Positions 13,386-59,894 of a stretch of 60,056 bases of DNA are shown here, piece after piece; the stretch's first letter is position 1, and each line of letters starts with the position of its first letter. A program made the translations under genes and the position numbers. This stretch comes from Kiritimatiellia bacterium (GTDB taxonomy: Bacteria; Verrucomicrobiota; Kiritimatiellia; CAIQIC01; Lenti-01). Where the stretch lies: contig JAFYAC010000073.1 in NCBI GenBank assembly GCA_017540905.1, positions 1 to 60,056 on the forward strand, written 5' to 3'. The notes beneath the pieces are model-generated. The model made no database searches. It was not told the DNA's origin and saw nothing but the letters and a program-made list of their open reading frames with translations.

Positions 13386-13426
13386 GGGTGTCTCCTGGGG
13401 GTTGGGGGGCGGGTTGGGGGGGGGCA

Positions 13427-13513
13427 AATTTTGAATTTCAGATTTCAGATTTCAATTTTCAACAATCTCAGATTTCAGATTTCAAATCTCAGATTTCAGA
13501 TTTCAAATCTCAG
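13427..13513. repeat. AT-rich heptamer/21-bp tandem array (family C, copy 1)
   Basis: This 87-bp tract is built from CAGATTT, CAAATCT and CAATTTT-type heptamers. From about 13468 it contains two consecutive 21-bp units, each made of three heptamers. It begins at the TGA stop of the PEGA gene and ends 42 bases before the YcfL start. It is strikingly A/T-rich against GC-rich surroundings. A second copy lies at 43696-43759. Confidence 0.85.
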
Positions 13514-16135: not shown

Positions 16136-16215
16136 GGCGGGAATGTAGCGCAGACCATGGCGGATGTCATGCGGAAAAGGGGCGGTTTTCCAGGCGGCGG
16201 GGAATGGTGGAGCGG

Positions 16216-16256
16216 TTTTCCAACCATTGGAAAAAAAGTTTCCAACCATTGGAAAA
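16216..16256. repeat. TTTTCCAA-N3-TTGGAAAA dyad repeats (family B, 2 units)
   Basis: Two inverted-repeat units (16216-16234 and 16239-16256) have arms TTTTCCAA / TTGGAAAA and central triplet CCA. They lie between the stop of glmS and the start of the COG3014 operon, both on the minus strand. The other arrays are at 42091-42190 and 59823-59894. Confidence 0.85.
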
Positions 16257-16278
16257 CCGGGGCGGGGCGGGGGAGCGG

Positions 16279-23317: not shown

Positions 23318-23356
23318 CCGCGATGGCGCACAACCCGTCCCGGACGCGGAAAATCC

Positions 23357-23399
23357 CGATTGCAGTCGATTGCAATCGATTGCAGTCGAATGCAATCGA
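23357..23399. repeat. 10-bp palindromic tandem array (family A, copy 1)
   Basis: Four units of CGATTGCARY/CGAATGCAAT in exact 10-bp period, closed by CGA. It lies in the 136-bp gap between the PilO-like gene and gspD, inside one operon. Consensus CGATTGCAAT repeated head to tail is self-complementary. Further copies are at 36808, 37680 and 55259. Confidence 0.9.
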
Positions 23400-26458: not shown

Positions 26459-29400
26459 ATGGAACACGCGAAAACGAAGCAGGTTGCCGGTTGGCTGGCG
26501 GCGGGACTGGGGCTGTGGCTGGCGGCGGGCACGGCGTGGGCGCAACACCTGGCACCGGTGAATCCGGCGTTCGCCAAGTGGATGAAGGACGGCGGCAAGG
26601 AAGCCGCCGCCGCGCGCCGGGCCGCGGCGCGGGCGCGGGGCGATGAAGGGCCGTCGCTGGGATACGTCCCCGAGGTGGCCGACCTGTCGTATCTGGCCGA
26701 TTTGAACGATTCCATGGAATGCGGCGTCTCCGCGGGCCGTCCCGCCCGCTACGACCTGCGCGACGAGGGCCGCGTGACGCCGGTGCGCGACCAGGGCACC
26801 CACCCGACGTGCTGGGCCCACGCGGCAATGGCGTCGTTGGAGCCGTCGGCGAAGGCGTCGGTGGGGGTCGATCCAGACTGGTCGGAGGGCCACATGGCGG
26901 CGAACCACGGATGGAGCGCCTCCGTGGAGGACGGCGGCAACGCCATGATGGCGTCTGGCTACCTCCTGCGCTGGGGCGGTCCGGTGGCGGAAGCGGACGG
27001 GGATTCCCCGGCGGCGTCCCCCGAAGCGCACGTGCAGCGCACGCGCTGGGTGCCGGGCAAGGTGGCCGCCCTGGACAACGACCGCATCAAGGACGCCATT
27101 GTGGCGCACGGCCCCCTCTATGCGGGCTTCTGGTGGTCGGAAGGCTACTACGACCCGGCACACGCCTCCTTCCGCGCGCCCGCCGAGGCGCTGGGCCGCT
27201 CCCCGAACCACGCGGTGGCGCTGGTCGGCTGGGACGACACCTATCCGCGCGGCAATTTCCGCGATCCGCCGCCCGGCGACGGCGCCTGGCTGGCGAAGAA
27301 CAGCTGGGGGGAGGACTGGGGCGACGGCGGCTTCTTCTGGGTATCCTACTGGGATGCGACGCTGGGCCGGAACACGATGCACGCCTTCGCCGGCGTGGAG
27401 GCCGCGGACAACTACGACGCGGTCTGGGAGCACGATCCGCTGGGGTTCGTGGGCAGCGTGGGCGGCACGGGCAGCACCGCGTGGGGCGCGAACGCGTTCA
27501 CGGCGGCGTCGGCGACGAAGATCGCGGCGGTGGGCTTCTGGGCGCTGGCGCCGCGCACGAGCTACCACCTGTGGGTCTACGCCGGCGGCACGGCCGGCAA
27601 ACCGCGTTCCGGGCGCCTGCTCTCCGACCAGAGCGGCAACCTGGACGACGCCGGCTACGTGACGGTCCCGCTGGAGACCCCGGCGGAGGTGGCGGCGGGC
27701 GAGCGCTTCACGGTGGTGGCGAAGCTGACGACGCCGGGCTACAAGTACCCGCTGGCGGTCGAGTACCAGGTCCACGGCGCCACCGACGCCGCCAACGCCG
27801 CCAAGGGCCAGAGCTTCCTGAGCCTGGACGGCCAGACATGGAGCGACTTCACGGAGAAGGTTCACGCGACGGCCAATTTCTGCCTCAAGGCCTACGCGAA
27901 GTCCGGCGAAACCGCGCGCACCCTCGCCGGCCTGGCGATCTCGGGCCCCGGCAGCATCGCCTCCGGCAAGAGCGCGGCCTACGCCTGCGAAGCCCGCTAT
28001 TCCGACGGCTCCGCGCGCCCCGTGGCCCCCGCGTGGAGCATCGCGGAAGGCGCCGCCTGGGCGGCCGTCGACGCCGCGGGCACCGTGACGGTGGGGGAGG
28101 TGGACGGGACCGTCCGCGCGACCCTGCGCGCCGACTACGAAGAATCCGGCACCTCCGCGAGCGCCGAATGGACCTTCGAGGTGACGGCCGCGGCCCCGGC
28201 GGCCCCGTCGGGCCTGGTGGCGACCGAAGGCACCGAGACCTCGTGCGTCCGCCTCTCGTGGGATGCCACGGCGGGCGCGGCGACCTACGCCGTCTGGCGC
28301 AGCCCCACCGCCGAATCCCGCAATGCCGCCTACCTGGGCGCCAGCTCCGTCCCGCGCTACTCCGACACCACAGCCCTCCCCGGCACCGATTTCACCTACT
28401 TCGTCAAGGCCCGCAACGGCACCGGCACCAGCCCCTTCTCCGACGGAGCCGCCGGCTGGCGCGCCCTTTCCGCCCCGGCGGGCGTCGAAGCCGCCGACGG
28501 TACCGACCTGGACGCCGTGCCCGTCTCGTGGGAAGCCTCCGAAGGCGCCGCCGCCTACCGCGTCTGGCGCGCCCCCGCGGACGCCGGCGACGACGGCGAT
28601 TCCGACGCCTGGACCGACCTCTCCGGCTGGATCGTAGACCGGACCTTCCTCGACACCACCGCCGAACCCGGCGTCCCCTACCGCTACGCCGTTTCCGCGG
28701 CCGTCACCCCGTCCGGCTGGCGCGAAAGCGCCCCGAGCCTCTGGGACGAAGGCCGCCGCGCCGTCCCCGTCACCCTCTCCGCGCTGGAAATCAACGGCCC
28801 CGTGACGCTCGAATCCGGCGCCACTGGCGACTACCGCTGCACCGCCGTCTACACCGACGGCTCCCGCATCCCGGACGTCCCCGCCGCCTGGACCGCCGAC
28901 GCCGGCACCCTCGAAGCCGCCGGAGACGGTGCCCTCGCCCGCTGGACGGTCCCCGTTGTCGCCGCCAACGCATCCGTCCTCCTGCGCGCCGCCTGGACCG
29001 ACGACGCCGGCACCGCCGCCGAAGCCGCCCGCGAGGTTGCCGTCACCCCCGTGCGCCCCGCCGCCCCGGCCTCCATCGAAACCCTCGCCGCGACCGTCGA
29101 CGGCGTGACCGTCGGCTGGACGCCATCCCCCGGCGCCTCCGGCTACGTCCTCTGGCGCGGCACCGATGCCGCCGACCGCGGTGAACTGGCCGAAACCGCC
29201 GACACCGCCCACTCCGACACCGGCGGCGAACCCGGCACCACCTACCGCTACTGGGTCGCCGCCGCCAACGCCGCCGGAGCCAGCGAACCCTCCGCCGCCT
29301 TCGCCGAGGCCACGCGCCTTGTCGCCGCTCCCGCGCGCGTCACCGCCACCCATGGCGCCCGCGCCGCCGCCGTCACCGTATCCTGGGTCCCCGGTCCCGG

Positions 29401-32400
29401 CGCCACCCACCACCGCGTCTGGCGCGCCGACGCCCCCGACGCCGAAAAAACCGCCCTCGGCGATTGGGTCCCCGCCACCGCCTGGGCCGATGCCACCGCC
29501 GAACCCAGTGCCGAATACCGGTACTGGGTCGAATCCGCCGCCGATGCCGACGGCAAGGCCTCCGGCGGCCTCTCCGCGCCCGTCGCCGGCTTGCGCCTTG
29601 CCCCCCGCGAGGCCGTCGAAGTCATCGTGGACGGCCCCGGCGAGGTGTCCGCCGGCACCAGCGCCGCCTATGCCGCCACCGTCGCCTTCAACGACGGCAC
29701 CTCCGAGGCCGCCGCCGTCGCCTGGAACGTATTCGGCGGCGCCGATTGGGCCGCCATCGATGCCGACGGCGTCCTGACCGTCTCCGCGGCCACCGCCGAC
29801 GCCACCGTCGCCGTCGTCGCCTCCTGGACGCCCCCCGAAGGCTCCTCCACGCCCCTCGAAGGCCGCCTTATGGTCGCCGTGCACGGTGCCGCCGAGGCCA
29901 GCGCCGAAATCACCGACGCCGTCCTCCATGCCCGCTGGCCGTGGAACGGATGGGTCGATGTCGATTACACCATCGTCACCGCCCCCGAGGGGCAGACCGC
30001 CACCGTCAGCCTCTCCGGCTGGGACCTCGACCATCGCGAAGCCCTCGCCGCCCGCACCCTCGAAGGCGATGGCGCCGACGGCGAACCCGTATCCGCCGGC
30101 CCCCACCGCCTTTCCTGGAACCTCGGCGCCGACCACCCCGGCTTCCATGCCCGGGAATTCCGCGTATCCATGGGCGCCACCCCGTGGGTTCCGGACGCAC
30201 CGGGCGGCGACAAACAGCCGCAGCGCGTGGACTTCGCGCCCATCGGACCGCAGACGCCGACTGCCCGCGTGGAATTGCGGGCGACGGCGACCAGCGGCGG
30301 CGCGGTGGCGTTTGCCGTGGTGTCCGGTCCGGGGGAGCTGGATGGCAACGTGCTGACGTTCACCGGTCCGGGCCGCGTCGTCGTGAACGCGACGCAGGCC
30401 GGGGACGCCGAGTGGGCGGCGGCGACGGCGACGCAGAGCGTTCTCGTGCTCGCGGACGCGGCCGACAACGTCTGGCTGGTGGTGGACATGAGCGCAGGCC
30501 CGGAGGCCGTTTCCTGGCCCGTCGACTGGCTGGACGCAGAGCCGGAAGGCGGCTTCAACACCGCCCTCTACAAGACCGACAAGCTCGTCCTGCGCCGCAT
30601 CGCCCCGGGAACCTTCACGATGGGCAGCCCCGCCAGCGAACTGGGCCGCTGGGATGACGAGGACCGGCACGAAGTGACCCTGACAAAACCCTTCTTCCTG
30701 GGCCTCTTCGAGGTGACGCAACGCCAGTGGGAGCTGGCACTGGGAACCCGTCCGAGCTACTTCACCAACGACTCCTGCTACGCGACCCGTCCGGTCGAGC
30801 CGGTGAGCTACGAAGACATCCGGGGGCGCGCGGCGGGCGAACGCTGGCCCGCCGACAACGGCGTGGACGACGGCAGTTTCCTGGCCGTCGTCCGCGCAAA
30901 GACGGGGCTTTCGTTCGATCTGCCGACCGACGCGCAATGGGAATGGGCCTGCCGCGCGGGCACCACGGCCATGCTCAACAGCGGCAAGGACCTGACCGGT
31001 ACCGCCACCTGCCCGAACCTCGACGAACTCGGCCGCTACTGGGGCAACGGCGGGCAGAACGGCACGCCCTCCTGCGGCACGAGCGCCGGGACGGCCGAGG
31101 TCGGCAGCTTCCTGCCCAATGCGTGGGGCCTCTACGACATGCACGGCAACGTGTGCGAGTGGTGCCTGGATTGGTACGTGCCGTCGCTTGGGACGGGTGC
31201 GGTAACGGATCCGTCTGGACCCGCGTCGGGTTCCACCCGCGTGCTGCACGGCGGTGGCTGGGTGCATTCGGCCCGGTTCTGCCGGTCGGCGGCGCGCCAC
31301 TACCGCGACCCGGCGGAAATCTTCAACGGCTACGGCTTCCGTCTGGCCTGCACGGCCAGCGGGAAGCGCGTCCAGCGCGTCGTCTTCGCGCCAGTCGGCC
31401 CCCAGGCGGTCGGCGGGCGCGTGGAATTGGCCGCGACGGTGACGAGCGGCGGGCCGGTGGCGTTCTCGCTCGTGTCGGGGCCGGGCGCTCTGGACGGCAA
31501 CGTGCTGACCTTCACGGGCGAGGGGACCGTGGTGGTCCTCGCCACGCAGGGCGGCGACGAAACGTGGGAGGAGGCGTCGGCCACGCTGTCGGTCTTCGTG
31601 ACCGCGACGGCGGAACACCGCTACGCCATCGTCCCCTGCACCGGCGGCTGGCATGCGGCAAAGGCCGATGCCGAGGCGCGCGGCGGCCATCTGGCGACCA
31701 TCACCAGCGCCGAAGAATGGGCGGTCGTCACCAACCAGTTCGGAGCGCAGCTGCCCGGGTGCTGGATCGGCGGCACGGACGAGGCCGAAGAGGGGAACTG
31801 GACGTGGGTGACGGGCGAGCCGTGGACCTTCACGTGGTGGGGGCCCGGCGAACCGAATGGCGGCACGCACCAGAACTACCTCTGGATTCACATCGGAAGC
31901 GTCGAGGCGTATCGTTGGGATGACAGCCACGCGCCCTATTGCGAAGCCACGAAGTACCTGCTCGAAATCGAAGGTTCCGCCCCCGCCGGGAAGGAAGCGG
32001 CCATGGTGACGCTGGGCGGGCTCTCGCACGTGTACGACGGCACGGGCAAGGCCGCGACCGTCACGACCGAGCCGGAAGGCTTGGCTGTTCGGGTGACGTA
32101 CGACGGCGGCGAAGCCTTGCCGGTCGCGGTCGGCGAGTATGCGGTCGAGGCCACGGTGGTCGATGCGCAGTGGGAAGGCAGCGCAACTGGTGTGCTGGTC
32201 ATCGAAGCCGCGCCGGAGCCGGAACACCGCTATGAAATCGTCGAATGGACCGGCGGCTGGATTTCGGCCAAGGCCAATGCCGAGGCGCGCGGTGGACATC
32301 TGGCAACCATCACGAGCGCCGAGGAATGGGCCGTCATCACCAACCAGTTCGGCCGCCAGTTGCTGGGTTGCTGGCTGGGCGGAACCGATGCCGTGGCCGA

Positions 32401-33988
32401 AGGCGACTGGCGCTGGGTGACCGACGAGCCGTGGACCTTCACGTGGTGGGGCTCCGGTGAGCCGAACGGTAGAACGCGCCAGAATTACCTCTGGATTCAC
32501 ATCGACAGTGTTGGAACATATCGGTGGGATGACAACCAGACACCTTGCTCGCAGGCCACGAAATATTTGCTGGAAATCGACGGGTTGGAGCCTGCCGGGA
32601 AGGAACTGGCCACGGTGACGCTGGGCAGCCTCTCGCACGTGTACGACGGTTCCGGAAAGGCCGCGACCGTCACCACGGTTCCGTCTGGGTTGACCGTTGA
32701 GGTGCTGTACGACGGCTGCGAAGCGCTGCCGGTCGAGGTCGGCGAGTACGCGGTCGAGGCCACGGTGGTCGATGCCATCTGGCAGGGAAGCGCCAGTGGG
32801 GTGCTGACCATCTCGCCTGCATCGGCGACGAACCACCGCTACGAAATCGTGTCATGGACCGGCGGCTGGCTCGAAGCCAAGGCCGACGCCGAGGCGCGCG
32901 GCGGGCATCTGGCAACCGTCACGAGCGCCGAAGAATGGGCCGTCATCACTAACCAGTTCGGCTCGCAGCTGCTTGGATGCTGGCTGGGAGGCACCGACGC
33001 CGAAGTCGAAGGCGACTGGCAGTGGGTGACCGGCGAACCGTGGTCGTTCACGTGGTGGGGCCCAGCCGAACCGAACGGCGGGACGGCACAGAATTACCTG
33101 TGGGTCCACATCGGCAGCACGGCATCGTTCAAGTGGGATGACAGCCAGACGCCCTATTACGAAGCCACGAAGTATCTGCTGGAAATCGAAGGAGCCGAAC
33201 CGGAGGAGCCCGTGACTCCGGCACACCGCTACGAATTCGTCCCCTGGACCAACGGATGGCTCGAAGCCAAGGCCGACGCCGAAGCGCGCGGCGGGCATCT
33301 GGTGACCGTCACGAGCTCCGAAGAATGGGCCGTCATCACCAACCAGTTCGGCTCGCAGTTGCTCGGATGCTGGCTTGGGGGCAGCGACGCCGAGACCGAG
33401 GGCGACTGGCAGTGGGTGACGGGTGAACCGTGGACGTTCTCGTGGTGGGGTCCCGGCGAACCCAACAGCGGAAAGACGCAGAATTATCTATGGGTCCACC
33501 ACCAGAGCACGGCCTCCTTCAATTGGGATGATCGCGAATCGACCTGTGATGAAATTGCGGGGTACATTCTGGAAATCGAAGAATCGGAGCCAATTCCGGT
33601 GGAACACTTCTACGAGTTTGTCCCCTGGACCAACGGATGGCTCGAAGCCAAGGCCGACGCCGAAGCGCGCGGCGGGCATCTGGCAACCGTCATGAGCGCC
33701 GAAGAATGGGCCGTCATCACCAACCAGTTCAGCTCGCAGCTGCTTGGATGCTGGCTTGGTGGCAGCGACGCCGAGACCGAGGGCGACTGGCAGTGGGTGA
33801 CGGGCGAACCGTGGACGTTCTCGTGGTGGGGCCCCGGCGAACCCAACAGCGGAACCAAACAGAATTACCTGTGGATACACAACCGTAGCACCTCGGAATT
33901 CCGCTGGGATGACTCCCAGTCGCCGTATTACGAGGTCGTGGGCTACATTCTTGAAACCGAGGGGGAAGCCCCCGAAGGCTCGTTGTGA
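26459..33988 (+). CDS. Giant secreted mosaic protein: papain-like peptidase, FN3/Ig, SUMF1 and five C-type lectin domains
   Basis: A 2509-residue exported protein. Signal peptide 1-29; C1A papain-like peptidase about 90-310 with Gln112, Cys118 (THPTCWAHA), His251 (SPNHAVALVGWDD) and Asn281 (AKNSWGEDWGDGG), so likely active. A lectin-like domain (about 315-483) follows. About 490-1140 alternates Ig-like and fibronectin III modules. A SUMF1/FGE fold spans about 1380-1635 (APGTFTMGSP, LPTDAQWEWACRAG, GLYDMHGNVCEW, GYGFRLA), flanked by two similar Ig-like modules; the copper-site motif reads GGGWVHSARFC, with one of two Cys lost. Five 121-residue C-type lectin domains follow, with two MBG-type domains between the first three. 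The lectins carry EPN, the mannose-type calcium motif. GGAG lies 6 bases before the ATG. Likely role: glycan-targeted adhesion and proteolysis. It heads an operon with the next two genes. Confidence 0.9.
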   Translation: MEHAKTKQVAGWLAAGLGLWLAAGTAWAQHLAPVNPAFAKWMKDGGKEAAAARRAAARARGDEGPSLGYVPEVADLSYLADLNDSMECGVSAGRPARYDLRDEGRVTPVRDQGTHPTCWAHAAMASLEPSAKASVGVDPDWSEGHMAANHGWSASVEDGGNAMMASGYLLRWGGPVAEADGDSPAASPEAHVQRTRWVPGKVAALDNDRIKDAIVAHGPLYAGFWWSEGYYDPAHASFRAPAEALGRSPNHAVALVGWDDTYPRGNFRDPPPGDGAWLAKNSWGEDWGDGGFFWVSYWDATLGRNTMHAFAGVEAADNYDAVWEHDPLGFVGSVGGTGSTAWGANAFTAASATKIAAVGFWALAPRTSYHLWVYAGGTAGKPRSGRLLSDQSGNLDDAGYVTVPLETPAEVAAGERFTVVAKLTTPGYKYPLAVEYQVHGATDAANAAKGQSFLSLDGQTWSDFTEKVHATANFCLKAYAKSGETARTLAGLAISGPGSIASGKSAAYACEARYSDGSARPVAPAWSIAEGAAWAAVDAAGTVTVGEVDGTVRATLRADYEESGTSASAEWTFEVTAAAPAAPSGLVATEGTETSCVRLSWDATAGAATYAVWRSPTAESRNAAYLGASSVPRYSDTTALPGTDFTYFVKARNGTGTSPFSDGAAGWRALSAPAGVEAADGTDLDAVPVSWEASEGAAAYRVWRAPADAGDDGDSDAWTDLSGWIVDRTFLDTTAEPGVPYRYAVSAAVTPSGWRESAPSLWDEGRRAVPVTLSALEINGPVTLESGATGDYRCTAVYTDGSRIPDVPAAWTADAGTLEAAGDGALARWTVPVVAANASVLLRAAWTDDAGTAAEAAREVAVTPVRPAAPASIETLAATVDGVTVGWTPSPGASGYVLWRGTDAADRGELAETADTAHSDTGGEPGTTYRYWVAAANAAGASEPSAAFAEATRLVAAPARVTATHGARAAAVTVSWVPGPGATHHRVWRADAPDAEKTALGDWVPATAWADATAEPSAEYRYWVESAADADGKASGGLSAPVAGLRLAPREAVEVIVDGPGEVSAGTSAAYAATVAFNDGTSEAAAVAWNVFGGADWAAIDADGVLTVSAATADATVAVVASWTPPEGSSTPLEGRLMVAVHGAAEASAEITDAVLHARWPWNGWVDVDYTIVTAPEGQTATVSLSGWDLDHREALAARTLEGDGADGEPVSAGPHRLSWNLGADHPGFHAREFRVSMGATPWVPDAPGGDKQPQRVDFAPIGPQTPTARVELRATATSGGAVAFAVVSGPGELDGNVLTFTGPGRVVVNATQAGDAEWAAATATQSVLVLADAADNVWLVVDMSAGPEAVSWPVDWLDAEPEGGFNTALYKTDKLVLRRIAPGTFTMGSPASELGRWDDEDRHEVTLTKPFFLGLFEVTQRQWELALGTRPSYFTNDSCYATRPVEPVSYEDIRGRAAGERWPADNGVDDGSFLAVVRAKTGLSFDLPTDAQWEWACRAGTTAMLNSGKDLTGTATCPNLDELGRYWGNGGQNGTPSCGTSAGTAEVGSFLPNAWGLYDMHGNVCEWCLDWYVPSLGTGAVTDPSGPASGSTRVLHGGGWVHSARFCRSAARHYRDPAEIFNGYGFRLACTASGKRVQRVVFAPVGPQAVGGRVELAATVTSGGPVAFSLVSGPGALDGNVLTFTGEGTVVVLATQGGDETWEEASATLSVFVTATAEHRYAIVPCTGGWHAAKADAEARGGHLATITSAEEWAVVTNQFGAQLPGCWIGGTDEAEEGNWTWVTGEPWTFTWWGPGEPNGGTHQNYLWIHIGSVEAYRWDDSHAPYCEATKYLLEIEGSAPAGKEAAMVTLGGLSHVYDGTGKAATVTTEPEGLAVRVTYDGGEALPVAVGEYAVEATVVDAQWEGSATGVLVIEAAPEPEHRYEIVEWTGGWISAKANAEARGGHLATITSAEEWAVITNQFGRQLLGCWLGGTDAVAEGDWRWVTDEPWTFTWWGSGEPNGRTRQNYLWIHIDSVGTYRWDDNQTPCSQATKYLLEIDGLEPAGKELATVTLGSLSHVYDGSGKAATVTTVPSGLTVEVLYDGCEALPVEVGEYAVEATVVDAIWQGSASGVLTISPASATNHRYEIVSWTGGWLEAKADAEARGGHLATVTSAEEWAVITNQFGSQLLGCWLGGTDAEVEGDWQWVTGEPWSFTWWGPAEPNGGTAQNYLWVHIGSTASFKWDDSQTPYYEATKYLLEIEGAEPEEPVTPAHRYEFVPWTNGWLEAKADAEARGGHLVTVTSSEEWAVITNQFGSQLLGCWLGGSDAETEGDWQWVTGEPWTFSWWGPGEPNSGKTQNYLWVHHQSTASFNWDDRESTCDEIAGYILEIEESEPIPVEHFYEFVPWTNGWLEAKADAEARGGHLATVMSAEEWAVITNQFSSQLLGCWLGGSDAETEGDWQWVTGEPWTFSWWGPGEPNSGTKQNYLWIHNRSTSEFRWDDSQSPYYEVVGYILETEGEAPEGSL
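31613..33964 (+). repeat. Five near-identical C-type lectin coding repeats
   Basis: Units of exactly 363 bp start at 31613, 32222, 32831, 33221 and 33602. Units 1-2 and 2-3 are separated by MBG-domain spacers of about 246 bp, units 3-4 and 4-5 by short linkers (27 and 18 bp). Long stretches encoding GGHLATVTSAEEWAVITNQF are almost identical at DNA level, indicating recent duplication or gene conversion. Differences concentrate after the YLW(I/V)H segment. Confidence 0.92.
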
Positions 33989-36779: not shown

Positions 36780-36807
36780 GGTGGGGGTGGGGGTGGGTGG
36801 GGGGCTT

Positions 36808-36850
36808 CGATTGCAATCGAATGCAGTCGAGGGCAATCGAATGCAATCGA
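36808..36850. repeat. 10-bp palindromic tandem array (family A, copy 2)
   Basis: Four 10-bp units of the CGATTGCAAT type plus a closing CGA lie between the 3' ends of two convergent genes, 11 bases from the stop of the four-helix-bundle gene. It forms the right-hand (3') flank of that gene; copy 3 is on its 5' side. Confidence 0.9.
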
Positions 36851-36861
36851 ATTGACCGGCT

Positions 36862-37617
36862 TCAGAGAGGGCGGTGGCCCTTGCAGGTGGGGTGCGCGCT
36901 GCAACCCCAGAAATCGCCGTAGGGGCCGTGCCGCAGGCGCATGGGGGAGCCGCAGGTTGGGCAGGCTGGGGCGTCGTCGGGGGCGGGTGGGCCGCCTTGG
37001 CCGCGGCGGTAGGCGATCCGTGCGGCGGTCATCCGTTCCGTGGCGCCGCCGTTGCGGGTGAAGTCGTCCGCGACGCGGCGGAGCAGGTGCCCGAGCGTGG
37101 CGAGAGTCCGGGTGAGGAGGATGAGGAGGACGTTGGCCGCTCCCTCCTGGTCGCCACCAGCGAAGAACGGGGCGAACTTCGCGCGTTGCGCGATGAGGTG
37201 CATCGCGAAATCATGGTTGATGTCGTTCCCATAGGCCGCCGGATCGAGGCGCACGGCGAACACGGCCTTGGCCTCGGGTGAATCGGCCGCCAAGGGCGGC
37301 ACCCCGCGGTCCACGAGGAACGTGATGTAATCGTCGCGCAGCTCGCAGAGCGGCGCCTTGGCGACATTCAGCAGCTTGAGGGCGGTCTGCGCGGAGGTGG
37401 CGATCCGCTCGCACCCCTCGGTGATGTTCTTGACGCCGGAGCGGGCCGCCTGGGTCATCTGGTCGAACTGTCGCCCGCATGGATCGGTGGAGTGGGGGAG
37501 GTGGCGGCGGCAAAACGCCAGCGTTTCCAGCTGCACGAGGTTCGCCAGGATGTAGGCGTCGAGGCGCTTGTAGCCCGTGGAGGGGAGGAGGATGGGGAGT
37601 GGCGTGGGGGTGCTCAT
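36862..37617 (-). CDS. Four-helix-bundle (S23-like) protein with topoisomerase-type zinc-ribbon tail
   Basis: A 251-residue protein. Residues about 15-105 match the four-helix-bundle/S23 family found in 23S rRNA intervening sequences (YKRLDAYILANLVQLET, QAARSGVKNITEGCER, LKLLNVAKAPLCELRDDY). A less conserved helical region (about 110-200) follows. Residues 219-251 form a C4 zinc ribbon like the C-terminal repeats of topoisomerase I: Cys219, Cys222, Cys239 and Cys245 with the core GPYGDFWGC. The combination corresponds to the 'four helix bundle suffix domain' architecture. Nucleic-acid binding is inferred from the ribbon and family, not demonstrated. It stands between smc and a convergent methyltransferase gene, with a family A palindromic array on each side, which suggests insertion as a unit. 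Confidence 0.85.
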   Translation of the reverse strand: MSTPTPLPILLPSTGYKRLDAYILANLVQLETLAFCRRHLPHSTDPCGRQFDQMTQAARSGVKNITEGCERIATSAQTALKLLNVAKAPLCELRDDYITFLVDRGVPPLAADSPEAKAVFAVRLDPAAYGNDINHDFAMHLIAQRAKFAPFFAGGDQEGAANVLLILLTRTLATLGHLLRRVADDFTRNGGATERMTAARIAYRRGQGGPPAPDDAPACPTCGSPMRLRHGPYGDFWGCSAHPTCKGHRPL

Positions 37618-37679
37618 GGGGCGAAAATGGCACAAGGCGGGGGCATGCGCAAGAAGGAAAAGAACGAGAGTTCCGAATT

Positions 37680-37712
37680 CGATTGCAGTCGACAGCAATC
37701 GATTGCAATCGA
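37680..37712. repeat. 10-bp palindromic tandem array (family A, copy 3)
   Basis: Three 10-bp units plus closing CGA, 62 bases upstream of the four-helix-bundle ATG and 18 bases after the smc stop. Because the unit is self-complementary, this array can pair with copy 2 on the other side of the gene. Confidence 0.9.
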
Positions 37713-41349: not shown

Positions 41350-41768
41350 GCAACCGGGGAATCATGCCCCAACCCCCTCCCGGAATCAACCTGGAAAGTG
41401 GCGCCGGCAGGAACGGGAGAGAACGGGAGGGAAAGGGGCTGGAACGGGAGGGATCAGGCTCGCGGCGCGAAACACGGAGCGGGCGGAGGAAGGAGGGACG
41501 GAGGGTTTTGGAGGTGGAGTTTGTCGGAGGGGTATCCACGCTCAGAAAACGCACTTCAAACTCTTTTCCGTGGCCAAGGCAGGGAAACGCCGGAGCGACG
41601 CCCCTCCAGTCAACCACCGTGTCTCCTTCCTTTGCCGCTCCGTGTTTGCGCCGCAGGCAGGGATTGCCAGGCAACGCATTTGCGTCAAATAATTTGATTC
41701 TTTTTGTAATCTTGTGGAACGACCAATGGGATTTCACGATTGCAAGGAGCAAGAATGGCGACAGGATA

Positions 41769-42050
41769 CGCCCCCCTCCGAGAGGGGGGTGGCGCGGCCA
41801 TGAATGGGATGTCCATGCATGGGAAAAGACAAGCGGTAGGGGCCGTGACGGGGGGAGTACTTCGGTCAGGCGTCGCGGCAAGCGCGACTTCACACCGGCA
41901 ACAAACGAGCCTTTTGTGGATGGACCAAGTGGAAGCATGCATCGACGGCCCCCCGCAGCACTCCCCCCGCCGCCCTTTCCCTTCGCTTCAAAGGATCAAT
42001 CCAATCACCAATCCTTCCACCGGGCGCCACCCCCCTCTCGGAGGGGGGCG
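41769..42050. repeat. Perfect 27-bp inverted repeat enclosing 228 bp
   Basis: The 27 bases at 41769-41795 are the exact reverse complement of those at 42024-42050. Each arm is itself a hairpin (CCCCCCTC-CGA-GAGGGGGG, 8-bp stem) followed by TGGCGC. The enclosed 228 bp has no convincing gene. It may be a small non-autonomous element, or two copies of one hairpin repeat in opposite orientation. Confidence 0.8.
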
Positions 42051-42090
42051 AATGCTTGCGCACACCCCATGCTCTGAATGCGTCGAATGA

Positions 42091-42190
42091 TTTCCAATCG
42101 TTGGAAAACGGGTGAAAAACTTTTCCAATCATTGGAAACAATGCACAAATTTTTCCAACCATTGGAAAAATTTTTTCCAATCATTGGAAA
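42091..42190. repeat. TTTTCCAA-N3-TTGGAAAA dyad repeats (family B, 4 units)
   Basis: Units at 42091-42108, 42121-42138, 42150-42170 and 42171-42190 have central triplets TCG, TCA, CCA and TCA. Arms are conserved while centres and spacers vary. This is the largest array of the family in the window. Confidence 0.88.
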
Positions 42191-42294
42191 CCGGATTTTC
42201 AACGGCGAACAAGCGGATTGTGCAAAATCCGGGCGGCGTGGTTCCGGCGTCGGGGTGGGGGTGCCTTGCGTCCGGAAGCCGGCTGGCCTTCATC

Positions 42295-43695: not shown

Positions 43696-43759
43696 GAATC
43701 TCAGATTTCAAATTTCTGAATTTTGATTTTAGATTTCAAATCTCAAATTTCAGATTTGG
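43696..43759. repeat. AT-rich heptamer array (family C, copy 2)
   Basis: A 64-bp tract of CAGATTT, CAAATTT and TAGATTT-type heptamers, less regular than copy 1. It lies 21 bases upstream of the purB start, and on the minus strand reads GAAATCTGA-type units in the same orientation relative to the downstream gene as copy 1 upstream of ycfL. Confidence 0.8.
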
Positions 43760-54330: not shown

Positions 54331-55319
54331 AGATTCTCCTCTATCTGGACCCGTCCCCCGTCCGCGGCGGCATCGAAATCTACGCCGACCGCCAGGGCGG
54401 CCGCCTGCGTGCCGCGGGGCACGAAGTCGCCGTCGCGGACCGCATAGACCCGGACGCCCTCGCGCGCGCCGACGCCGTTTACGTCCACAAATGCGCCTCC
54501 GTGGACGACCTCGCCGCGTTCCCGCCCGACAAGACCACGGTGTACATCCACGACCACGAACCCGTCTGCCCCCGTACCTACGCCTACACCCCGCTCGGCC
54601 ACACCTGCACCCGCCCCGGAGCCCTCTGGCCGTGCCTCTTCTGCGCGCCCGCGTGCCGCGACTGGCGCGGCGCCCTCCGCCGCGTCCTGTCCCAGCGGCG
54701 CCGCAAGGAACTGCTCGCGCGGGTCGCCCGGCTCGTCGTCATATCGGAGTTCATGAAGTCGCGGCTTGTCGCCAACGGCCTGCCCGCGGAAAAAATCGTT
54801 GTCTCGCCGCCCGATCCGGCCGAATTCCCCCGTCCGGAGGGGAGCGTTCCCGGCCCCGTGGACCTCCTCTACGCCGGGCAGCTCCTCCGCGGCAAGGGTG
54901 TGCAGGTTCTCCTGCGCGCGATGGCCCTCATGCGGCGTCCGCGCACGCTCGACGTCATCGGCACCGGCAACATGGAGGCGGAACTGCGCTCGCTGGCCGA
55001 CCGGTTCGGCGTTGCCGGGCGCGTCCGCTGGCGCGGCTTCTCCGCCGACGTCCCCGCGTGGATGGCGGCCGCCGCGTGCGTCGTCGTGCCGAGCGTCTGG
55101 CAGGAGCCCTACGGGCTGGTCGCCGCCGAAGCCGTCGCGCTGGGCCGCCCCGTCGTCGCCAGCGACATCGGCGGACTGCCCGAAGCGTGCGGCGGCAAGG
55201 CCGTGCTCGTGCCGCCGGGGGACGCGGCGGCCCTGGCGGAGGCGTTGGATTCGAACTTCGATTGCAATCGACCGCAATCGACTGCAATCGACTGCAATCG
55301 CGCCAGGAGTTGCCCATGA
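54327..55319 (+). CDS. Family 4 glycosyltransferase with repeat-derived C terminus
   Basis: A 330-residue GT-B enzyme. The N-terminal domain begins ILLYLDPSPVRGGIEIYADRQ. A cysteine cluster (CPRTYAYTPLGHTC, CLFCAPAC; about residues 75-112) is common in a GT4 subgroup. The donor domain has DLLYAGQLLRGKGVQVLL, DVIGTGNMEAEL, and CVVVPSVWQEPYGLVAAEAVALGRPVVASDIGGLPE with the usual catalytic Glu pair. After VPPGDAAALAEAL the last about 20 residues come from a family A 10-bp repeat array (DCNR...TAIDCNR) and replace the usual C-terminal helices, so the protein appears truncated and re-terminated. GTG start at 54327, coupled to the gene before; the stop overlaps the next ATG. Confidence 0.87.
   Translation: MKILLYLDPSPVRGGIEIYADRQGGRLRAAGHEVAVADRIDPDALARADAVYVHKCASVDDLAAFPPDKTTVYIHDHEPVCPRTYAYTPLGHTCTRPGALWPCLFCAPACRDWRGALRRVLSQRRRKELLARVARLVVISEFMKSRLVANGLPAEKIVVSPPDPAEFPRPEGSVPGPVDLLYAGQLLRGKGVQVLLRAMALMRRPRTLDVIGTGNMEAELRSLADRFGVAGRVRWRGFSADVPAWMAAAACVVVPSVWQEPYGLVAAEAVALGRPVVASDIGGLPEACGGKAVLVPPGDAAALAEALDSNFDCNRPQSTAIDCNRARSCP
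55259..55300. repeat. 10-bp palindromic tandem array inside a coding end (family A, copy 4)
   Basis: Four 10-bp units (first canonical, others CGACCGCAAT/CGACTGCAAT) end 6 bases before the AGGAG that serves the next gene. It lies wholly within the last codons of the GT4 gene and stays open in its frame. Confidence 0.9.
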
Positions 55320-59678: not shown

Positions 59679-59822
59679 GGGGGCGGCCATTCCCGCTACG
59701 GCGGACGTGCAGAAACGCGTCCCTCCCCGTGGAGAGCGCCACGAACGGGCCACACCTCCGCCACGATGGCTTGGAAAGGTTTTTGGGGGGCACGATCCGG
59801 TCGCTCGGCGGGAAGCGGGGAG

Positions 59823-59894
59823 TTTTCCAATGATTGGAAAATTTTTTTCCAATGGTTGGAAAACTTCGTCCTGTTTTTTCAATGGTTGGAAAAA
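59823..59894. repeat. TTTTCCAA-N3-TTGGAAAA dyad repeats (family B, 3 units)
   Basis: Units at 59823-59841, 59842-59863 and 59874-59894 have central triplets TGA, TGG and TGG. The third unit has lost one C of the left arm. They follow the hydroxyacid dehydrogenase gene. The gene-free stretch 59679-60056 otherwise holds only the adjoining MITE-like element. Confidence 0.85.

What the first reader, a model, noticed from the sequence alone, without database searches (positions are those of the whole stretch)
36808..37712. Four-helix-bundle/zinc-ribbon gene enclosed by complementary palindromic arrays: an IVS-like cassette outside rRNA
Seen: the S23-like gene at 36862-37617 has a family A 10-bp palindromic array 11 bases after its stop and another 62 bases before its start; the only other copies in 60 kb are two single arrays. 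Because the unit is self-complementary, the two arrays could pair and enclose the gene in a stem. Known: S23-type four-helix bundles are encoded in intervening sequences of 23S rRNA, where the ORF sits in a long stem. Inferred: this may be a mobile or RNA-processed cassette in ordinary intergenic DNA, with the zinc-ribbon tail as nucleic-acid binding part. It is the best candidate in the window for an undescribed element.
Basis: partly seen in the sequence, partly recalled or inferred. Interest (0 to 1): 0.8.

Follow-up and report, generated by a model that had tools for sequence, protein, structure and literature searches.

The report
Helix-bundle gene bracketed by own repeats
In an uncultured gut-type bacterium and in a number of distant relatives, a gene for a small helix-bundle protein sits between two blocks of short repeats that go with that gene, and in the window's genome the same repeats are scattered widely, which suggests an undescribed kind of gene-plus-repeat element that moves.

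Summary
Observation confirmed; interpretation half right. The 251-aa gene (36862-37617, -) encodes a four-helix-bundle-suffix protein (TIGR04258) with a Top1-type zinc ribbon; its predicted bundle matches S23/IVP and Avd structures. It lies between two arrays of a TCGANNGCNN decamer. The decamer is not private to it: it recurs through the genome, mostly just behind stop codons (49 of 59 intergenic arrays within 60 nt; random placement 19 of 64).

The gene-array link is nevertheless real. In sister species G002 the array-gene-array unit occurs with other neighbours, homology stopping at the arrays. Among 97 distinct homologue loci scored, 53 share a repeat between both flanks, against 5 of 232 control genes. 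Paralogues carry different repeats; repeat similarity tracks protein similarity; 78 of 79 array-scored rows fall in one clade. In four relatives an array interrupts the gene itself, in frame.

It works most like a REP/RAYT pair, with an S23/Avd-fold protein in place of the transposase. Mobilisation by the protein is inferred, not shown. The IVS-like (rRNA, RNase III) reading is not supported. Nine searches of an open-access library listed no description of the association.

The parts
36806..37712 (-). whole unit: array 1 - helix-bundle gene - array 2; the stretch homologous to G002 C95, with different neighbours there
   Evidence: blastn window 36806-37712 = L136 8963-8052, 82%; neighbours differ
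36807..36850 (.). array 1, four decamer units, 11 nt after the helix-bundle stop and 27 nt after the methyltransferase-like stop
36862..37617 (-). 251-aa four-helix-bundle protein with suffix domain and C4 zinc ribbon
37679..37712 (.). array 2, three decamer units, 61 nt before the helix-bundle start and 18 nt after the smc stop
23356..23399 (.). dispersed copy of the array, 38 nt after a called stop codon; same array at the orthologous place in G002 (L154)
55258..55301 (.). dispersed copy of the array near the 3' end of a called 330-aa gene; array at the matching place in G002 (L161)

Best explanation
A two-part element that works like a REP/RAYT pair. Part one is a protein: an S23/Avd-type four-helix bundle plus a suffix domain and usually a zinc ribbon, whose gene sits between two copies of its own short repeat array. 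Part two is the array family itself: tandem units of about 7-10 bp, palindromic or arranged so that the array folds into a hairpin; in the window's genus scattered singly through the genome, for this family mostly just behind stop codons. I propose that the protein recognises its cognate array (as hairpin ssDNA, RNA or duplex) and promotes copying or joining of array-bounded segments: usually a bare array, sometimes array-gene-array, occasionally a gene fragment. SHOWN: the unit and its altered neighbourhood between sister species, the association across taxa, different repeats for different paralogues, near-restriction to one clade, tracking of protein by repeat, arrays inside the gene, 3'-end placement. 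INFERRED: that the protein binds the array and moves it.
For: Unit in altered neighbourhoods: window 36806-37712 = G002 L136 8963-8052; the methyltransferase-like homology ends inside array 1, the smc homology inside array 2; the 523-aa gene beside the unit in G002 is 95-97% collinear with G000 L034 up to the array edge, behind which the two differ. Association: flank-to-flank repeat score >=16 in 56 of 100 homologue loci (53 of 97 without three genes held twice); in the 67 loci that also gave controls, 46 of 67 against 5 of 232 other genes. Different repeats: 18 loci in four genomes read by eye, repeats on both sides in 13, on one side in 5. Two other families are dispersed too: CTAGATA in 4 of 28 genomes, GACTTGC in 3 of 28 (reversed control 1 hit in one other genome) and not in G000, where that paralogue was not found either. 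Clade: 78 of 79 array-scored rows in one clade of 116 rows, 1 of 39 outside. Tracking: Mantel rho 0.25 and 0.31, p 0.001 each, the floor of 999 permutations. In-frame arrays inside the gene in L170, L171, L172, L177, and a 3' gene half behind an array in G004. 3'-end placement: 49 of 59 against 19.4 +- 3.6 of 64. Fold S23/Avd.
Against: No catalytic domain is recognised and no movement was observed. 44 of 100 homologue loci lack a matching repeat pair at score 16; among the loci from related (same-class) genomes only 7 of 28 have one, against 49 of 72 in the named set. Further, mostly more distant loci fare worse at score >=14: 0 of 10 chosen because only the bundle matched (5 of them proved longer on re-alignment), 1 of 9 without zinc ribbon (a tenth, L313, could not be scored), 5 of 20 further paralogues. 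G001 has the arrays without an orthologue of this protein. In Prevotella tf2-5 the repeat is hardly dispersed (8 of 10 matches are at the gene itself). Unit order in the arrays is not arranged for hairpin pairing (32 of 56 fold better than permuted, p 0.12). Gene order is scrambled in this genus, so breaks in array-bearing gaps could be ordinary rearrangement.
Confidence: 0.55

Rival explanations
1. The arrays are gene-3'-end elements (terminators, mRNA stabilisers or roadblocks) and the helix-bundle protein is the factor that binds them; it controls its own gene through the flanking arrays and does not move anything.
For: 49 of 59 intergenic arrays within 60 nt of a stop codon; stable hairpins; in 14 of 20 comparisons of a G000 gene end with its match in the fetched G001/G002 stretches a clear array is kept, 3 degenerate, 3 without (the stretches were chosen around arrays, so this is biased towards presence).
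Against: Does not explain the changed neighbourhood of array-gene-array, arrays inside the gene's own coding sequence, or weak dispersal in Prevotella. No U-tract was noticed behind the few arrays read by eye (not tested systematically).
Confidence: 0.25
2. Ordinary rearrangement: the arrays are a REP-like family spread by something else, and homologous recombination between copies shuffles genes, this one included.
For: Gene order is scrambled across the genus; arrays persist without the gene in G001; a MITE-like family and two other palindrome families share the genome.
Against: Does not explain why helix-bundle-suffix genes from Bacteroidales to Kiritimatiellae carry flanking repeats far more often than control genes in the same loci, with different families, or why repeat and protein similarity go together.
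Confidence: 0.12
3. IVS-like RNA cassette: the two arrays pair over the gene and the transcript is cut out by RNase III, as with S23 ORFs in 23S rRNA.
For: S23-type fold; complementary arrays on both sides; IVS elements are stems enclosing an S23 ORF (PMC4990558, passages read).
Against: No rRNA found here; each array folds locally; in the homologue loci with a flank match the direct match exceeds the inverted one in 50 of 56; most arrays examined are solitary.
Confidence: 0.06

Closest known systems
REP elements with RAYT transposases (REPtrons, BIMEs, REPINs)
   Same: Gene delimited by copies of its own palindromic repeat; repeats scattered between genes; repeat and protein similarity track each other; gene fragments caught between repeats (PMC2817692, passages read; the names REPtron and REPIN from listings and recall). 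RAYT genes evolve fast; here the gene is 82% identical in DNA against 92% and 98% for its two neighbours, but other window genes also fall to 71-85%, so speed is not established.
   Different: No Y1/HUH transposase domain in the protein; arrays are tandem 7-10-bp units rather than single 20-40-bp palindromes; not all genes have both repeats.
S23/IVP proteins of 23S rRNA intervening sequences
   Different: Not in rRNA; extra suffix domain and zinc ribbon; repeats dispersed through the genome.
Avd, accessory protein of diversity-generating retroelements
   Different: No reverse transcriptase among the few neighbours scanned; the genome was not searched for one.
NCBIfam TIGR04258, four helix bundle suffix domain
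   Same: This gene is a member by curated cut-off.
   Different: The family is only a name; the one search for it in papers found none.

Membership tests
TIGR04258 four helix bundle suffix domain | profile score above curated cut-off | tested here: met
   44.4 bits against 40
PF05635 / S23 IVP | profile score above curated cut-off | tested here: not met
   PF05635 19.6 against 33.8; TIGR02436 22.6 against 24
PF05635 / S23 IVP | four-helix-bundle fold like XCC0516 | tested here: met
23S rRNA intervening sequence | located inside a 23S rRNA gene | tested here: not met
   no Rfam match in the window at gathering thresholds; neighbours are a methyltransferase-like gene and smc
23S rRNA intervening sequence | terminal complementary sequences | tested here: met
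   36-nt arms, 89% complementary
23S rRNA intervening sequence | excision by RNase III | not testable with these tools
   needs RNA
REP/RAYT | gene flanked by its own repeats, which are also dispersed in the genome | tested here: met
   for this family; for two others; weak in Prevotella
REP/RAYT | Y1/HUH tyrosine transposase encoded | tested here: not met
   Pfam on P0001 shows zinc-ribbon families and IVP only
REP/RAYT | GTAG or CGTC tag at one end of the palindrome | tested here: inconclusive
   none noticed by eye in the decamer arrays printed; no tag search was run
REP/RAYT | repeat and protein similarity track each other | tested here: met
   Mantel p 0.001 in two hand-picked sets of 40 and 31 loci, pairs of 85% identity or more left out; shared organism ancestry not removed
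DGR (Avd) | reverse transcriptase and template/variable repeats nearby | not tested
   the seven window proteins scanned with Pfam, P0001 included, are not RTs; the genome was not searched for RTs
anti-phage defence | match in PADLOC | tested here: inconclusive
   no match for P0001

The most novel reading that the evidence does not exclude
S23/Avd-fold helix-bundle proteins with a suffix domain are the trans-acting half of an undescribed class of mobile short repeats, found here in loci of Bacteroidota, Kiritimatiellota, Lentisphaerota and Verrucomicrobiota. They move hairpin arrays (and now and then themselves) without any known transposase, integrase or reverse transcriptase domain. The S23 ORFs in rRNA intervening sequences and Avd in retroelements would then be related uses of one nucleic-acid-handling bundle, which would explain why an S23 gene sits in a stem in rRNA.
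Probability: 0.4. Interest if true: 0.93.

Novelty: new variant of a known kind. Interest (0 to 1): 0.8.

Why it matters
S23/IVP proteins have been known as fellow travellers of rRNA intervening sequences for decades, with no known function (PMC4990558, passages). Here a large branch of related proteins is tied to private short repeats, dispersed in at least one genus, which gives a concrete, testable role: recognising and spreading a hairpin array. If true it adds a second, transposase-free answer to how short palindromic repeats spread in bacteria, and possibly an owner for repeat families that have no transposase partner (CGTC-tagged REPs are reported as such in PMC3733652, passages; I did not test whether they pair with these genes).

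Tried and rejected
IVS-like RNA cassette: rejected as the leading reading (no rRNA found; local hairpins; solitary arrays).

Arrays private to the gene: rejected; dispersed genome-wide, in 4 of 97 related genomes.

My interim view that the gene and arrays are unrelated: it rested on looking for the decamer only at paralogue loci. It fell when the flanks were read and the paralogues showed other repeats. An earlier count said EVERY paralogue is enclosed on both sides; that overstates: by eye 13 of 18 on both sides, 5 on one side.

Selection on hairpin pairing between units: no support.

Tandem-periodicity test instead of flank-to-flank matching: weaker but same direction; both flanks >=14 in 16 of 99 against 4 of 232 controls, either flank in 49 of 99 against 44 of 232 (L060 left out as a duplicate). 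Three genes are held twice in the 100 loci (L060/L169, L068/L185, L075/L210). The 232 controls come from 67 of the 100 loci only; the loci are too short to give any.

Plasmid and phage carriage: 1 of 72,556 plasmid records (a 568-kb Prevotella nigrescens record), 0 of 50,697 phage records. PADLOC: none. PHROGs: best E 0.0013, unknown function, zinc-ribbon part only.

Clean empty site for the unit: not obtained. In G002 the sequence behind array 2 is not what follows the solo array in G000, so a simple insertion is not shown, only changed neighbours at arrays. Since intergenic DNA diverges fast and arrays resemble each other, the exactness of these breaks is partly forced.

Tree: quick method, several long branches, some genes held twice. 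L057 and L147 score 'no' there although one search shows CTAGATA repeats on both sides (the downstream one lies beyond a C-terminal extension), and L058 has repeats on one side, so restriction to one clade is not strict.

Array conservation: of 20 comparisons of a G000 array-bearing gene end with a match in G001/G002, 14 keep a clear array, 3 a degenerate one, 3 none (L042 against L165, 96.5%; L040 and L045 against the same 85% match in L149, which may not be the orthologue).

Literature: nine searches of open-access PMC papers; none of the listings showed this association, though several had far more hits than were listed. PMC10910872 names '23S rRNA IVP' in a figure legend on CRISPR adaptation-module associations (that passage only). 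For PMC4990558, PMC2817692, PMC3733652 and PMC10053308 I saw passages only.

Full report

NOT PRIVATE TO THE GENE. A two-unit pattern has 85 + 84 matches in the 3.5-Mb genome and none for the reversed control. Of 97 related genomes searched, 4 (the window's own, two of its genus, one of a sister genus) carry it, while 73 of 97 encode a relative of the protein. In the stretches I fetched there are 64 distinct arrays (36 G000, 26 G002, 2 G004; stretches chosen around arrays and helix-bundle genes). Five lie in called genes; of the other 59, 49 are within 60 nt of a stop codon. Placing 64 arrays at random in intergenic gaps gave 19.4 +- 3.6 (highest 28 in 300 trials) (genes called by my own script). 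Of 20 comparisons of a G000 array-bearing gene end with a match in the fetched G001/G002 stretches, 14 keep a clear array, 3 a degenerate one and 3 none; the stretches were chosen around arrays, so presence is favoured. Arrays differ by whole units (2 to 4 units, L046/L162; 4 to 5, L055/L159).

THE UNIT CHANGES NEIGHBOURS. In G002 (a Kiritimatiellae genome, RGIG6649 from sheep rumen, by way of L169) the homologue of window 36806-37712 runs from the outer edge of one array to the outer edge of the other (82%), but on the other side of the methyltransferase-like gene; smc (98%) is elsewhere without the gene. G001 has smc without the gene, followed by another repeat family. None of the 29 other smc loci held (26 other genomes, about 1.5 kb of flank at most) encodes the gene. 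The 523-aa gene beside the unit in G002 (looks like an antiporter or complex I subunit; not searched) is 95-97% collinear with G000 up to a solo array, after which the two genomes differ. Caveats: this genus is scrambled over the parts compared, and arrays help to end an alignment. Array 2 in G002 lies between two gene starts, so it is not merely the 3'-end element of smc.

THE ASSOCIATION IS GENERAL BUT NOT UNIVERSAL. One search scanned named genomes with the protein; the best 80 of 96 confirmed loci were kept. With 29 loci, 100 loci with full-length genes and at least 150 nt on both sides were scored: the best ungapped match between the 220-nt flanks is >=16 in 56 of 100, against 5 of 232 other genes in the same loci (Mann-Whitney p 8e-24 on the scores; loci are not independent). 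Without three genes held twice it is 53 of 97; in the 67 loci that gave controls 46 of 67; in named genomes 49 of 72; in the same-class set only 7 of 28. The repeats differ: 10-bp TCGA units in the nearest Kiritimatiellae-type loci, 8-bp units in many Bacteroidales; over all taxa period 8 is found in 45 of 65 flank arrays >=14. In four related genomes I read the flanks of 18 loci (orthologues included): by eye repeats on both sides in 13, one side in 5, with distinct families. Two of these are themselves dispersed: CTAGATA in 4 of 28 genomes (50, 32, 107 and 23 strand matches) and GACTTGC in 3 of 28 (21, 19, 13; reversed control 1 hit in one other genome), not in G000, where that paralogue was not found either (G000 is 84% complete). 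In Prevotella tf2-5, 8 of 10 matches are at the gene itself, so dispersal is not universal.

SUBFAMILY AND TRACKING. Mostly more distant loci do worse at score >=14: 0 of 10 chosen because only the bundle matched (5 proved longer on re-alignment), 1 of 9 scorable without zinc ribbon, 5 of 20 further paralogues. In a quick tree of 155 rows, 78 of the 79 rows scored >=14 lie in one clade of 116 rows (SH-aLRT 99), 1 of 39 outside; 22 label changes against 52 shuffled, 0 of 500 as low. L057, L147 and L058, outside that clade, have repeats by eye that the score missed. Shared repeat 7-mers rise with protein identity (pairs of 85% or more left out): rho 0.25 in 40 Bacteroidales loci scored >=14 and 0.31 in 31 other loci picked by hand, Mantel p 0.001 each, the floor; relatedness of the organisms is not removed.

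ARRAYS INSIDE THE GENE. In L170, L171, L172 and L177 an array lies in frame between bundle and suffix domain (34 to 128 nt, read as a linker), and in G004 the 3' half of such a gene follows an array behind an unrelated gene's end. This mirrors rayt 3' ends caught in BIMEs (PMC2817692, passages).

HOW IT MOST LIKELY WORKS. Arrays fold locally as hairpins (z -2.9 to -13 as RNA in 9 of 9 tested; -3.0 to -10.9 as DNA in 7 of 7), though unit order is not tuned for pairing. I infer that the bundle, helped by suffix and zinc ribbon, recognises its cognate array and promotes copying or joining at arrays. The near-invariant stretch from D45 to S60 and E67, R71, T74, S75, T78, E92 (invariant columns) are the residues to mutate first. 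The chemistry is unknown; a host enzyme may do the cutting.

WHAT IS NOT SHOWN. Binding, cutting, movement, expression. The rivals, above all a 3'-end binding factor, stand until tested.

Noticed in passing
41731-42082: About 352-bp repeat with 38-bp inverted ends (I11); 22 listed places in G001 at 79-91% identity and 2 in G002 (scored candidates are capped): MITE-like.
   Followed up: no
16215-16257, 42090-42212, 59822-59893: Second palindrome family TTTTCCAAYCATTGGAAAA, tens of listed places in G001 and G002 and 28 arrays in the fetched stretches; none of the 18 helix-bundle loci read has these flanks.
   Followed up: partly
13413-13513, 43697-43757: AT-rich arrays of an ATTTCAG-like 7-mer, five in the fetched G000 stretches.
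   Followed up: no
22501-60056: Gene order is scrambled between species of this genus although several genes are 95-98% identical: neighbouring window genes match many different contigs of G002.
   Followed up: partly
26459-33988: 2509-aa protein with papain-type protease, lectin-like, FGE-sulfatase, five C-type lectin and MBG matches; tandem repeats of 76-79% identity in this region.
   Followed up: no
L172 2996-7450 and L176 4624-9417: Seven (L172) and four (L176) TCGA-type arrays lie inside one very long reading frame next to the helix-bundle gene; a gene with the words RYPWNG lies close by in L170 and L176 (in L172 and L177 the printed piece of a like gene was cut short).
   Followed up: partly
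L340 2938-3627: Prevotella nigrescens 568-kb record: annotated four helix bundle suffix gene with CCTAG-type repeats seen downstream only.
   Followed up: partly
L150 3045-3071: In G001 the smc 3' end carries the GACTTGC repeat family in place of the decamer array.
   Followed up: yes
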